From Halapricum desulfuricans (GTDB lineage Archaea; Halobacteriota; Halobacteria; Halobacteriales; Haloarculaceae), in the NCBI RefSeq assembly GCF_017094505.1, contig NZ_CP064787.1:434001-498000 (forward strand): a stretch of DNA of 64,000 bases. Direction: 5' to 3'. Positions 25,940-56,948 of the stretch are shown one piece after another. Made by a program: the position numbers and the translations under genes. The notes below the pieces were generated by a model. It searched no databases. It was not told the origin of the DNA and worked only from the letters and a program-made list of their open reading frames with translations. The first letter of the stretch is position 1. Every line of letters begins with the position of its first letter.

Positions 25940-26014
25940 CTCCGGGGTCAAGTGGTTCGAGAGACGTCGTCTCTCGTCATCACGGAAGACTGCGTCTTCC
26001 GTACGACCCCGGAG
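25940..26014. repeat. 75-bp double-hairpin structure, copy A (tnpB 3' end; probable omega-RNA end)
   Basis: An outer 10-bp stem (CTCCGGGGTC with GACCCCGGAG) encloses two hairpins. They are GAGAGAC-GTC-GTCTCTC and GGAAGAC-TGC-GTCTTCC, joined by GTCATCAC. It overlaps the last codons and stop of tnpB. In this family the tnpB 3' end encodes the guide (omega) RNA, so the minus-strand transcript here is the likely scaffold end. Copy B at 27912 has the same fold with different stem sequences. Confidence 0.7.
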
Positions 26015-27306
26015 CTTCTTCCCGTGGATTGGTCGGACACACCCGACACACCATCGGTCTGGTGGCCTTCAACGGTGTGGTGGGTCACGGTCGGGCCGTC
26101 CACAGGCCCCGATGCCTGCCGTCGCAACTCCCATTTCCGCACTTGCGGGAGTGTGTTGAGAGCAGGCACATTTCTGTCCTCTTGTGTTTGCAGCCACTTC
26201 TGTGCGACACTGATACCTGCGCCACGGTCGGCGTGGTCTTGATGCTCGCACTCACGACATTTGAACCGCTTCTTGTGGCGATTTGCCTGTTCTATGTGTC
26301 CGCAAATCGGGCATTGCTGGCTGGTGTACTCCGGGTCAACGTCATCTGACGGAATCCCTTGCCACGCCGCCTTGTACGTGATGAAGTCCCGAAGTTTGGC
26401 GAACGGAAGCGAGTGCAGACGGCGGTTCATTCGAGTCCCGTACTCGATATCGTCTCGCATGTCTTTGAGGTCTTCAAAGACAATTACAGGACTGTCGAAC
26501 CGTTGAATCCACTCGACTACGCGCCGTGACACCGTGTGTAGCTGGTCGTGAACGAACCGTTGCTCCTTATCGCGGAACACGTCGTTAAACGCGGTCTGTC
26601 CGGCTTCTTGCATCCGTTTCCGCATCGTGAAGTACCGGTGTCGTTCTTCCTTGATTTCTGGGTAGTCGATAACAATTGAATCTTCGATACCGCTCTCAGT
26701 CAGTGTCGCTAGCGCAACGCAGTCTTCGTTAATATCGACACCGATAACCGTTTCTGCCGCTGTTTTTGCATCAACTTCGGCGGTTTCGTTCGTGACGGTG
26801 ACGTGCAATTCTTCACGTCCGTTTCGGCAGAGTGCTTCGGCAGTGCCAACGTGCCAGTCATCGTCTTTCATCGCCTGCGTAAGCAGGTCGAACTGGTCTT
26901 GCGTACCACGAAGCTCGCCTTTGACGTGGTTGTACGGTTTCGCTGAGATACGGAACCGTACCGTTTCGTCTTCGAGAAAGAGGTTATAGCCCTCGCCGTA
27001 GTTCATCCGCAGTGGGAACGTCTCGTGTTTGTACCATGGGCGTCCCCAGTCGTCGTTGTCGTAGTAGTTGTCGAGTGCGTCGAAGGCTTTGTCGATGATG
27101 CGCTGTGCAGTGTTTTGCACGAGGTCGGCGTTCTGCTCAACAACATCCTCAATCTTGTCCCAGTCCCGCCCGTCGTAGTTGAGGCGTAGCACCTCATTGA
27201 ACACGCGGCGACACTCCAATCGAGCGTCATGAAGCAGGCTCTCGTTGCCACTCTGCACGTCCAGCGGGAACACGAGTGTCTTTGTGAGAGCCTGTGTCTG
27301 CGTCAT
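25948..27306 (-). CDS. tnpB: TnpB RNA-guided endonuclease of IS200/IS605 element
   Basis: A 452-residue TnpB. RuvC-like acidic residues are visible in GVDINEDCVALA (Asp), VIVFEDLKDM (Glu) and DHADRGAGISVA (Asp). The zinc ribbon is CPICGHIEQ...FKCREC. The last ~20 residues are encoded by the double-hairpin structure at the element end and are unlikely to matter for folding. It is longer and diverged from the second TnpB in this window. Its ATG overlaps the stop of an upstream RHH gene by 3 nt. The predicted guide continues into the flank, i.e. the antisense 3' end of the methyltransferase gene. Confidence 0.9.
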   Translation of the reverse strand: MTQTQALTKTLVFPLDVQSGNESLLHDARLECRRVFNEVLRLNYDGRDWDKIEDVVEQNADLVQNTAQRIIDKAFDALDNYYDNDDWGRPWYKHETFPLRMNYGEGYNLFLEDETVRFRISAKPYNHVKGELRGTQDQFDLLTQAMKDDDWHVGTAEALCRNGREELHVTVTNETAEVDAKTAAETVIGVDINEDCVALATLTESGIEDSIVIDYPEIKEERHRYFTMRKRMQEAGQTAFNDVFRDKEQRFVHDQLHTVSRRVVEWIQRFDSPVIVFEDLKDMRDDIEYGTRMNRRLHSLPFAKLRDFITYKAAWQGIPSDDVDPEYTSQQCPICGHIEQANRHKKRFKCRECEHQDHADRGAGISVAQKWLQTQEDRNVPALNTLPQVRKWELRRQASGPVDGPTVTHHTVEGHQTDGVSGVSDQSTGRSSGVVRKTQSSVMTRDDVSRTT

Positions 27307-27437
27307 TCTTGGTCGTTCACCCAGTCTCGGACGAGTCCACGCACGACTTCGGACTTGGTTTTCTCAGCGTCGATGCATTGCTTCGAGAACTCCTTGTACA
27401 ACTCGTCCTCCAAGTCCACGGTGAGTCGTTTAGTCAT
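27303..27437 (-). CDS. Tiny ribbon-helix-helix (CopG-like) protein upstream of tnpB
   Basis: A 44-residue ORF: MTKRLTVDLEDELYKEF begins with a beta-strand followed by helix 1; TKSEVVRGLVRDWVND forms helix 2. This is the full RHH fold, a DNA-binding dimer. Its stop codon overlaps the tnpB start (ATGA), so the two are translated together. The 56-bp gap to divergent tnpA would hold both promoters, an obvious operator site. A role as repressor of tnpB/tnpA is inferred from fold and position. Confidence 0.75.
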   Translation of the reverse strand: MTKRLTVDLEDELYKEFSKQCIDAEKTKSEVVRGLVRDWVNDQE

Positions 27438-27493
27438 CTCACACATACTACTTATTCACTGAAATACTTAAATCTTGTCCACGTACTGTCTGT

Positions 27494-27892
27494 ATGGGCG
27501 AGAAACGGTCAAACCACACGGTATACAACGTCAACTACCACTTTGTGTGGTGTCCAAAGTATCGACACCCGATACTGGGTGTGATAGAGGATTCACTAGA
27601 ATCGAGTTTTCGAGAGGTGTGTGACGAGTACAATTACGAAATATTGTCATTGTACATCTCACCCGACCACGTACACCTGTTCCTGTCGGCACATCCCAAA
27701 CACGCTCCGAGCAAGATTGTACGGACAGTCAAGAGCATTACAGCACGAGAGATGTGGCAACAGCACGAACCCCTGTTACAAGAATACCGGTGGGGTGGTG
27801 GGTTCTGGGAAGAATCGTACTACGTCGGGACGGCTGGTGATGTTTCGACCGAGACGATTGAACAGTACATCGAGCGAACGGAACACGTTTAG
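27494..27892 (+). CDS. tnpA: TnpA, IS200-type Y1 (HUH) transposase
   Basis: A 132-residue single-strand transposase. It has VNYHFVWCPKYRHPIL at the N-terminus, the HUH metal motif in SPDHVHLFLS, and the catalytic Tyr in the FWEESYYVGTAGDV helix. Length is typical and the frame is intact, so the element may be mobile. It acts as a dimer on hairpins at the element ends. It is divergent from the RHH-tnpB pair. Confidence 0.95.
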   Translation: MGEKRSNHTVYNVNYHFVWCPKYRHPILGVIEDSLESSFREVCDEYNYEILSLYISPDHVHLFLSAHPKHAPSKIVRTVKSITAREMWQQHEPLLQEYRWGGGFWEESYYVGTAGDVSTETIEQYIERTEHV

Positions 27893-55171: not shown

Positions 55172-55554
55172 TACCGGAAAAATCCGATTCCGGCCCGGAA
55201 AAGCGTGTCGAAGCGCTCGGTCGCGGCACATTCTCTCGGATTGAGTCGTTCTACCGGGTGATTTAGCTGAGAACAGGCGCTAATCCCCCTCCCTCAAGGA
55301 GTCGTTCGAGAATCTTCGATTCTCGTGATCCCGAAAATCTTCGATTTTCGGACGACACCGCAGTCCGCGCAAGCGGACCAGGAGCGCAGTAGGGGGATAC
55401 AGCGTCCCCAGAAATCGAAGATTTCTGGTGTGCGAACGAATCGCGGAGCGACTCGTCAACGCCGTCATCGTCTTCCATACATTGTTCTATTCCCGGCCCA
55501 CTGGCCCACGTAATCCAAACATGTATTAAATACTAAACGTGTAGTGTGCATACG
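55172..55554. other. Intergenic region with hairpins upstream of the second TnpB unit
   Basis: This 383-bp gap has no gene I can support. It holds double-hairpin copy C (55292-55363) and a further hairpin with a GAA loop (55408-55428, CCAGAAATC/GATTTCTGG). An AT-rich stretch at 55510-55550 probably carries the promoter of the RHH-tnpB pair. Confidence 0.6.
55292..55363. repeat. Double-hairpin structure, copy C
   Basis: The inner part matches copies A and B: AGTCGTTC, hairpin GAGAATC-TTC-GATTCTC, linker GTGATCCC, hairpin CGAAAATC-TTC-GATTTTCG, then GACGAC. The outer GGGGTC/GACCCC stem is missing. It lies about 190 bp before the RHH gene, where the left end of the TnpB unit would be expected. 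Confidence 0.65.
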
Positions 55555-55677
55555 GTGAAACGGAAGACAATCACCATCCGAGAAGACCAAGAAGAATGGA
55601 TTCAGGACAACCACCTGAACCTCTCCTCGTTCATCCAAGAACAACTGGACGAGCTAATCGAAGAACGCGAACCCTAG
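55555..55677 (+). CDS. Tiny ribbon-helix-helix protein upstream of second tnpB
   Basis: A 40-residue ORF from a GTG: KRKTITIREDQEEWIQ (strand then helix 1) and LNLSSFIQEQLDELIEER (helix 2) give a minimal RHH DNA-binding fold. It ends 3 nt before the tnpB ATG. The sequence differs from the 44-residue RHH protein before the first tnpB, yet the position is the same. A regulator of tnpB is inferred. Confidence 0.7.
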   Translation: MKRKTITIREDQEEWIQDNHLNLSSFIQEQLDELIEEREP

Positions 55678-55680
55678 TCC

Positions 55681-56943
55681 ATGAACTACAACTACAGGTA
55701 TCGCCTCAAGCCGACCGAACGCCAGCGTGAGACGCTGGACTACCACCGCGATACCTGTAGACAACTCTACAACCACGCCCTGTATCGGTTCAACCAGATT
55801 CCCGAAGACGAGGGTACCGTCAAACAGCGTGTCCGGAAGATCCGTGACGAACTTCCCGACCTCAAAGACTGGTGGGACGCACTCACCGACATTTACTCGA
55901 AGGTGCTCCAGCCCACCGTCATGCGGATTGCGAAAAACATCAAACGTCTCGGACAACTCAAAGAGCAGGGGTACAAGGTTGGTGAGCTTCGGTGGAAGTC
56001 ACCTCGGGAGTTTCGCAGTTTCACCTACAACCAGTCTGGCTTCGAACTCGACAAGAAGAGTGGTCAGACTGTGCTGTCGCTGTCGAAGCTCGCAGACATC
56101 CCCATCGAACTCCACCGACCGCTGCCTGACGATGCCACGGTCAAGGAAGTCACGCTCAAAAAGGAGAAAACCGGCGAGTGGTTCGCTATCTTCGGCATCG
56201 AGACGGACACAGAACCACCAGCCAAGCCATCGCTGGAGGAGATTGACACTGACGAGATGGTCGGGATTGACGTGGGGATTCTGAAGTATGCCCACGACAC
56301 AGACGGCACAGCAGTCGAATCACTCGACCTCTCGGAGGAACGCGACAGGCTCGAACGAGAGCACCGGAACCTCTCGCGCAAAGCATACGAGTCGAACAAC
56401 TGGGAGAAGCAACGTCGGCGTGTTGCTGAGTGCTATCTCGACATCAAGCGCAAGCGGCGTGATTTCCTGCACAAACTCTCAGCATACTACGCTCGGGAGT
56501 ACGAACTGGTAGCGGTCGAAGACCTCGACGTGAAAGAGATGCTGGAATCGCCGCGCAACAGCCGTAACACGGCCTCAGCAGCATGGAACACCTTCACCGA
56601 TATGCTCGAATATAAGTGCGAGCGGGAAGGCACGCACTTCGTGGAGGTTGAACCCGAAGGCACCACGAAAGAGTGTGCTCAGTGTGGCGTTGAAACTGAG
56701 AAACCGCTGTGGGTGCGTGAGCACTCCTGTCCGGCTTGTGGGTTCGAAGCAGACAGAGACGCAAACGCAGCGTGGAACATTCTTTGTCGCGGTCTGTCAG
56801 AACTAGGAGTGGGTCACTCCGAAGGAACGCCTGTGGAGACTGCGCTCCCTGTGGACACTGCGGTTGTGTCTGCAAAGCGCGTCGTGGAAACAGGAAGCCC
56901 CTGCCTCAAGGAGCTGCCGAAGGCGGCGAGTAGGCAGGGGTAG
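55681..56943 (+). CDS. tnpB: TnpB RNA-guided endonuclease, second type
   Basis: A 420-residue TnpB. N-terminus YRYRLKPTERQRETLDYHRD is typical. RuvC acids are in GIDVGILKYAHD (Asp), LVAVEDLDVKEM (Glu) and EADRDANAAWNI (Asp). The zinc ribbon is CAQCGVE...CPACG. All key residues are intact, so it may be active. Its C-terminal tail is encoded by the terminal hairpin. Clearly a different subfamily from the TnpB at 26 kb. The predicted guide begins right after 56948, in the flank before the SWIM-domain gene. Confidence 0.92.
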   Translation: MNYNYRYRLKPTERQRETLDYHRDTCRQLYNHALYRFNQIPEDEGTVKQRVRKIRDELPDLKDWWDALTDIYSKVLQPTVMRIAKNIKRLGQLKEQGYKVGELRWKSPREFRSFTYNQSGFELDKKSGQTVLSLSKLADIPIELHRPLPDDATVKEVTLKKEKTGEWFAIFGIETDTEPPAKPSLEEIDTDEMVGIDVGILKYAHDTDGTAVESLDLSEERDRLEREHRNLSRKAYESNNWEKQRRRVAECYLDIKRKRRDFLHKLSAYYAREYELVAVEDLDVKEMLESPRNSRNTASAAWNTFTDMLEYKCEREGTHFVEVEPEGTTKECAQCGVETEKPLWVREHSCPACGFEADRDANAAWNILCRGLSELGVGHSEGTPVETALPVDTAVVSAKRVVETGSPCLKELPKAASRQG

Positions 56944-56948
56944 TTCAC
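56898..56948 (+). ncRNA. Probable 3' end of TnpB guide (omega) RNA
   Basis: CCCCTGCC (56898-56905) pairs with GGCAGGGG (56933-56940), with GCCGAAGGC inside the loop, then AGTTCAC at the element boundary. In IS200/IS605-type elements the tnpB 3' end is transcribed as the guide RNA scaffold, and the guide continues into flanking DNA. The 5' limit of the RNA cannot be seen. Confidence 0.5.

What the first reader, a model, noticed from the sequence alone, without database searches (positions are those of the whole stretch)
55555..55677. A second, unrelated RHH microgene in the same position before a different tnpB
This 40-residue RHH protein shares the fold pattern but not the sequence of the one at 27303-27437, and precedes a TnpB of another subfamily by 3 nt. 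Recurrence at two distinct elements argues for convergent or ancient association of RHH regulators with TnpB, not chance.
Basis: partly seen in the sequence, partly recalled or inferred. Interest (0 to 1): 0.6.

Follow-up and report, generated by a model that had tools for sequence, protein, structure and literature searches.

The report
Swappable regulator cassettes preceding archaeal tnpB
A 40-residue DNA-binding protein, closely related to the DNA-binding end of a known antitoxin, sits directly in front of an RNA-guided nuclease gene in a salt-loving archaeal jumping gene; close relatives carry a different DNA-binding mini-gene, a transposase or nothing at that spot, which suggests a plug-in off-switch that is repeatedly exchanged.

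Summary
A 40-codon ribbon-helix-helix (RHH) gene (55555-55677) ends 3 nt before an intact tnpB (55681-56943), inside a 1,682-bp IS200/IS605-type element (55267-56948). Its empty target site (TTTAG) is preserved in relatives.

The microgene is real: dN/dS is about 0.14-0.19, 150 of 391 haloarchaeal genomes carry it, and 61 of 69 assessable copies in one family are followed by tnpB. It is not obligatory. TnpBs up to 90% identical carry instead a Y1 TnpA, a DUF2080 protein or nothing, and the junction lies exactly at the tnpB start codon. The tree needs at least 23 slot changes.

The other tnpB clade in the window shows the same slot with an unrelated RHH, a VapB-like RHH or DUF2080; there the cassette accompanies a divergent tnpA (21 of 23 occupied, 0 of 8 empty). 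A third clade uses a MazE/AbrB-type domain. The 55555 protein is 58% identical to the DNA-binding domain of a CcdA-like antitoxin paired with a PemK toxin, minus its tail.

Best explanation: tail-less antitoxin domains recruited convergently as autorepressors of tnpB (and tnpA). Operator evidence is strong for DUF2080 cassettes, weak for this RHH.

The parts
55267..56948 (+). whole mobile element, IS200/IS605 superfamily, IS1341-type (no tnpA); inserted 3' of TTTAG (55262-55266) without target duplication
   Evidence: empty sites in congeneric genomes L286, L288, L289 and, less cleanly, L287; shared ends with related elements
55267..55510 (+). left-end block with subterminal hairpin (ccccctccctcaaggag...gcagtaggggg), shared with elements of other slot types; carries extra small palindromic inserts
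   Evidence: alignments
55511..55680 (+). exchangeable cassette: promoter, RHH gene and 3-nt spacer
   Evidence: alignments between elements of different slot type stop exactly at 55680/55681; cassette vs tnpB identities
55524..55531 (+). TATA-like box (tattaaat) about 27 nt before the start codon, fitting a leaderless transcript
   Evidence: read from the sequence; promoter function is inference
55555..55677 (+). RHH microgene (RHH-A), 40 aa, GTG start (alternative in-frame GTG at 55546)
55681..56943 (+). tnpB, RNA-guided nuclease, RuvC and zinc-finger motifs present
   Evidence: NCBIfam guided_TnpB 276 bits; motifs
56897..56941 (+). right-end hairpin and 3' end of the presumed guide-RNA scaffold; element ends with GTTCAC at 56948
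   Evidence: fold of 56780-56948, z -2.3; end from empty sites; guide-RNA role by analogy
27303..27446 (-). RHH-B microgene of the other element (CopG/ParG type), unrelated in sequence to RHH-A
25948..27306 (-). tnpB of clade 2, overlapping the RHH-B gene by 4 nt
27447..27493 (.). 47-bp region between the divergent RHH-B and tnpA genes; the sequence of this region differs with cassette type in relatives
27494..27892 (+). Y1 tnpA (IS200 type), divergent from RHH-B/tnpB
   Evidence: Pfam Y1_Tnp; present next to 21 of 23 occupied slots and 0 of 8 empty slots of clade 2

Best explanation
The frame at 55555-55677 is a genuine small DNA-binding protein gene carried as a cassette (own promoter plus gene) between the left end and the tnpB start codon of a mobile IS200/IS605-type element. 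The protein corresponds to the RHH DNA-binding domain of a CcdA-like type II antitoxin without the toxin-binding tail. It is the first cistron of a two-gene operon, with tnpB 3 nt behind. As a dimer it most likely binds its own promoter and represses the operon, keeping the RNA-guided nuclease low once the element is established. In the other clade, where a divergent tnpA shares the promoter region, the cassette would repress tnpA as well. Other elements use unrelated DNA-binding cassettes (VapB-like RHH, MazE/AbrB-type, DUF2080) in the same slot; cassettes are exchanged between elements and were recruited convergently. Shown here: coding status, position, mobility of the element, exchange, homology to an antitoxin domain, palindromes before DUF2080 cassettes. 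Inferred: dimerisation, operator binding, repression of tnpB and tnpA.
For: Purifying selection. Near-exclusive linkage to tnpB in the reverse search. The slot is filled by several unrelated families that share only DNA-binding folds: RHH_1/ParG, VAPB_antitox, MazE, DUF2080. At least 23 slot changes on the TnpB tree, with junctions at the start codon. Relatedness to a CcdA-like antitoxin in front of a PemK toxin; such antitoxins autoregulate their operons (established for type II systems). In clade 2 the cassette accompanies a divergent tnpA and the intergenic sequence differs with cassette type. Palindromes ending 4-7 nt before DUF2080 genes, mean score 5.2 vs 1.5 in shuffles. Dyads in RHH-A subgroups, e.g. 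TGTGCATAgAGTATATAcTATGCATA. TnpB motifs intact, so there is an active nuclease to control.
Against: No operator is statistically secure for RHH-A as a whole (inverted repeats not enriched; direct repeats weakly, Wilcoxon p 1e-4 but combined p 0.10), nor for the window copy. Some close elements have an empty slot (8 of 80). No expression or binding data. PDB profile and fold searches returned no RHH entry, as can happen for so small a monomer of an intertwined dimer.
Confidence: 0.62

Rival explanations
1. Leader cistron: the microgene serves mainly to give tnpB a leaderless, well-translated first cistron and translational coupling; its protein is secondary.
For: Gaps of -4 to +6 nt and frequent stop-start overlaps; TATA-like box about 27 nt before the start.
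Against: The amino-acid sequence is conserved (dN/dS about 0.14) and the slot is filled specifically by DNA-binding folds; a leader would not need either.
Confidence: 0.12
2. Direct antitoxin-like partner: the protein binds TnpB or its RNA-protein complex and inhibits cleavage.
For: Derived from or closely related to an antitoxin; gene order antitoxin-nuclease.
Against: The toxin-binding tail is missing (40 vs 78 aa); very similar TnpBs go with unrelated occupants or none, so no co-adaptation is visible.
Confidence: 0.11
3. Transposition factor: the protein binds element ends or controls a trans-acting TnpA, rather than regulating tnpB.
For: In clade 2 the cassette goes with a divergent tnpA; in clade 1 it stands where tnpA stands in relatives sharing the ends.
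Against: Ends are shared by elements of all slot types, so a protein specific to one cassette is unlikely to be needed for end recognition.
Confidence: 0.1
4. Passenger: a selfish or accidental cassette without effect on tnpB.
For: Slot content is exchangeable and sometimes absent; some RHH copies are broken (the genome's second copy has an in-frame TAA).
Against: Several unrelated DNA-binding folds converge on one position; purifying selection; near-exclusive linkage to tnpB.
Confidence: 0.05

Closest known systems
IS200/IS605 superfamily, IS1341-type (tnpB-only) elements of haloarchaea (PMC3119063)
   Same: tnpB, subterminal hairpins, insertion 3' of a short target without duplication, no tnpA
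   Different: an RHH cassette occupies the place that tnpA has in relatives with the same ends; no such cassette is described in the passages on these elements read there
DUF2080 family transposase-associated protein (NCBIfam NF033496, Pfam PF09853)
   Same: small protein in the same slot before tnpB, exchanged with the RHH cassette
   Different: different fold and sequence; its function had not been assigned; here promoter palindromes suggest a DNA-binding autoregulator
CcdA-like antitoxin with PemK/MazF-type toxin (type II toxin-antitoxin)
   Same: RHH domain 58% identical over 33 residues; small DNA-binding gene directly before its partner gene
   Different: no toxin-binding tail; the partner is TnpB, not a PemK toxin
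CopG of pLS1 and other minimal RHH repressors (own knowledge)
   Same: about 40-45 residues, RHH domain alone; works like a copy-control autorepressor if the explanation holds
   Different: in a transposable element operon with a nuclease, not a plasmid rep operon; no detectable sequence membership
Aca (anti-CRISPR-associated) autorepressors (PMC9410906)
   Same: small DNA-binding regulator paired with a mobile-element effector gene
   Different: HTH proteins placed after the acr gene; unrelated
TldR, nuclease-dead TnpB-like repressors (own knowledge)
   Same: TnpB locus with a gene-regulatory twist
   Different: here TnpB keeps its catalytic motifs and the regulator is a separate protein

Membership tests
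IS200/IS605 superfamily, IS1341-type | tnpB of the guided-TnpB family | tested here: met
   NF040570 276 bits, cut-off 100
IS200/IS605 superfamily, IS1341-type | insertion beside a short target without duplication; hairpins near the ends | tested here: met
   empty sites; right-end hairpin; left-end block shared with relatives
IS200/IS605 superfamily, IS1341-type | no tnpA in the element | tested here: met
   no Y1 frame in 55267-56948
Ribbon-helix-helix superfamily (55555 protein) | match to a curated RHH model above its cut-off | tested here: not met
   no Pfam or NCBIfam hit for the protein itself; 22 of 42 relatives hit CcdA below its cut-off
Ribbon-helix-helix superfamily (55555 protein) | beta-alpha-alpha topology with alternating residues in the strand | tested here: inconclusive
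   helices 13-22 and 28-40 predicted, N-terminal stretch unpaired in the monomer; PDB fold search empty
Ribbon-helix-helix superfamily (27303 protein) | match to RHH_1 above its cut-off | tested here: met
   PF01402 26.6 bits, cut-off 20.5
CcdA-like type II antitoxin | homologous N-terminal DNA-binding domain | tested here: met
   58% identity over 33 residues
CcdA-like type II antitoxin | C-terminal toxin-binding tail and cognate toxin gene downstream | tested here: not met
   40 aa against 78 aa; tnpB instead of a PemK gene
Autoregulated repressor operon | operator overlapping the promoter | tested here: inconclusive
   strong palindromes for DUF2080 cassettes; dyads in RHH-A subgroups but weak overall
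Autoregulated repressor operon | binding and repression shown | not testable with these tools
   needs footprinting and reporter assays
TldR (nuclease-dead TnpB-like repressor) | loss of the RuvC catalytic residues | tested here: not met
   RuvC and zinc-finger motifs present in the window TnpB and in 20 of 21 full-length RHH-linked TnpBs by pattern

The most novel reading that the evidence does not exclude
The slot is a repressor-immunity locus: each cassette type represses only elements with its own operator, so cassette exchange creates new immunity groups of otherwise near-identical tnpB elements. This would hold each type to one or a few copies per genome while many types coexist, and would explain the puzzling mix of high diversity and low copy number of haloarchaeal IS1341-type elements.
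Probability: 0.28. Interest if true: 0.8.

Novelty: new variant of a known kind. Interest (0 to 1): 0.62.

Why it matters
TnpB is the ancestor of Cas12 and one of the commonest nucleases in nature, yet how its expression is held in check is little known. A class-wide set of exchangeable DNA-binding cassettes in front of tnpB, at least one close to an antitoxin's DNA-binding domain, gives a concrete and testable control mechanism. It offers an answer to the observation (PMC3119063) that haloarchaeal tnpB elements are very diverse, mostly unlinked to tnpA, and seem under stringent copy-number control. It also shows a gene family largely missing from annotation: 18 of 28 plasmid matches have no listed gene (that gene table is incomplete).

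Tried and rejected
Chance ORF: rejected. Obligate RHH-TnpB partnership: rejected. Common origin of the two RHH microgenes: no support (hhalign probability 0.3%). TldR-like dead nuclease: rejected, motifs intact. Classical toxin-antitoxin with TnpB as the toxin: the tail is missing. Known guide-RNA family: no Rfam match at E<=1. Recent transposition inferred from two identical copies in one genome (L112/L125): rejected, they lie in a duplicated segment. PDB profile and fold searches: nothing. Generic inverted-repeat operator for all RHH-A copies: not significant. Literature searches for TnpB with ribbon-helix-helix, CopG, MazE or DUF2080 gave no description of the cassette.

Full report
1. What is there. 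The window is haloarchaeal; its genome has congeners that match named Halapricum contigs. At 55555-55677 there is a 40-codon frame starting with GTG (an in-frame GTG at 55546 would add three codons), ending 3 nt before the ATG of tnpB 55681-56943. Position 55555 is the likely start: V or M stands there in nearly all relatives. A TATA-like box (tattaaat, 55524-55531) lies about 27 nt upstream, which fits a leaderless transcript (inference). TnpB scores 276 bits with the guided-TnpB model and keeps its RuvC and zinc-finger motifs.

2. The element. Congeneric genomes (L286, L288, L289, and L287 less cleanly) have the uninterrupted locus...gatttag|gctactggagccc... in L286. In the window 1,682 bp (55267-56948) lie between tttag and the flank, with no target duplication. 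This is the signature of an IS200/IS605-type insertion. There is no tnpA inside, so it is IS1341-type; elements with the same ends and a similar tnpB carry tnpA in the slot (L025, L028). The microgene therefore moves with the element. The 3' part folds into a terminal hairpin (56897-56941; z -2.3); no Rfam family matches.

3. The microgene is a gene. Across 72 distinct copies pooled pN/pS is 0.25 and median dN/dS 0.14; close pairs give 0.19; third codon positions vary most. In 146 genomes of the family, 56 have a match. I inspected the neighbourhood of these matches: of 69 copies that could be assessed, 61 are followed by a tnpB, about 55 of these at -4 to +6 nt, the rest at decayed copies. 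These loci partly overlap the species and are not independent events. The exceptions are three longer antitoxins (below), four copies of a distinct solo RHH, and one remote protein. Class-wide, 150 of 391 genomes in 51 of 86 genera match; of 30 loci inspected 29 have a tnpB start directly downstream, a few of them truncated.

4. The slot is exchangeable. Among the 80 TnpBs closest to this one, the position before tnpB holds RHH in 22, DUF2080 in 13, Y1 TnpA in 37 and nothing recognisable in 8. On the TnpB tree this needs at least 23 changes (17 for RHH against the rest; at least 7 forced by well-supported branches). Alignments between elements of different slot type stop at 55680/55681 and resume in the left-end block ending near 55510. 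L024 and L034 have DUF2080 cassettes 90% identical before tnpBs 78% identical; L023 and L018 have tnpBs 88% identical behind cassettes that align at only 63%.

5. The second clade. tnpB 25948-27306 has the unrelated RHH-B overlapping by 4 nt. Of 31 clade-2 loci (30 plus L271), slots hold RHH-B, a VapB-like RHH or DUF2080; 21 of 23 occupied slots lie next to a tnpA, nearly all divergent and adjacent, against 0 of 8 empty slots. The short stretch between tnpA and cassette differs by cassette type although tnpA is homologous. RHH-A and RHH-B show no profile similarity. In the genus census further TnpBs have a MazE/AbrB-type microgene (L169, L179, L184, L224), an RHH-like frame of 43 aa (L161/L162/L173) and another RHH-like frame (L276, L281; by pattern only, no Pfam hit).

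6. Origin. The closest relatives of RHH-A outside transposons (L156, L157, L159) are CcdA-like antitoxins (78-79 aa in the two scanned) overlapping a PemK-family toxin gene; the window protein is 58% identical to the N-terminal domain. The microgene corresponds to that domain without the tail; the direction of descent was not tested by a tree. Occupants in other clades match VAPB_antitox, MazE and ParG. The pattern is convergent use of antitoxin- or partition-type DNA-binding domains.

7. Mechanism. DNA-binding domains with their own promoter, placed first in the operon, suggest autorepression. Operators: DUF2080 cassettes have palindromes such as GTATATCC-aaa-GGATATAC or TGTTGAAAC-aat-GTCTCAACA ending 4-7 nt before the start in most of 20 copies (mean score 5.2 against 1.5 in shuffles). 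For RHH-A, dyads are clear only in subgroups or single copies (TGTGCATAgAGTATATAcTATGCATA; ACTATRCG-N8-CGYATAGT; TTTACACAA-c-TTGTGTAAA) and the overall test is weak. The step from cassette to repression is inference, better grounded for DUF2080 than for this RHH.

8. Known or new. The element kind, TnpB, RHH and DUF2080 are known. I found no paper describing RHH or other cassettes before tnpB or their exchange in the open-licence library; subscription literature was not searchable. PMC3119063 records that 35 of 38 tnpB genes in Natronomonas are unlinked to tnpA and suggests stringent copy-number control, to which such cassettes would be a natural answer. Hence: new variant of a known kind.

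Noticed in passing
L210, L212, L216, L200, L027 upstream of DUF2080 genes: DUF2080 genes carry a near-perfect palindrome ending 4-7 nt before the start codon, with different half-sites in the two TnpB clades; suggests that DUF2080 is a site-specific DNA-binding autoregulator.
   Followed up: partly
L169:1361-1477, L179, L184, L224: A 39-aa MazE/AbrB-type microgene sits 5 nt before another TnpB clade in several genomes of the genus.
   Followed up: partly
window 55298-55359 and 55404-55456: The left end holds extra small palindromic inserts (e.g. cgagaatcttcgattctcg, ccagaaatcgaagatttctgg) that relatives such as L018 and L054 lack and L017, L022 and L002 partly share; they look like very short mobile or repeat elements nested in the element.
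   Followed up: no
G000:C1:2279222-2280673 (L002, L014): The genome has a second RHH-tnpB element (RHH 76% identical) whose RHH frame is broken by an in-frame TAA while tnpB is largely open.
   Followed up: partly
L145:1789-1917, L150, L152, L153: A related RHH of about 42 aa ('...INLSSLVRECIDERMESSSAD') occurs without tnpB behind it; possibly a solo cassette or a remnant.
   Followed up: no
L156, L157, L159: CcdA-like RHH antitoxins overlap a PemK/MazF-family toxin gene in haloarchaea; no curated model matches these antitoxins above its cut-off.
   Followed up: partly
L070: A contig filed under a Syntrophomonadaceae (Bacillota) MAG carries a haloarchaeal RHH-tnpB element; probably a binning error.
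   Followed up: no
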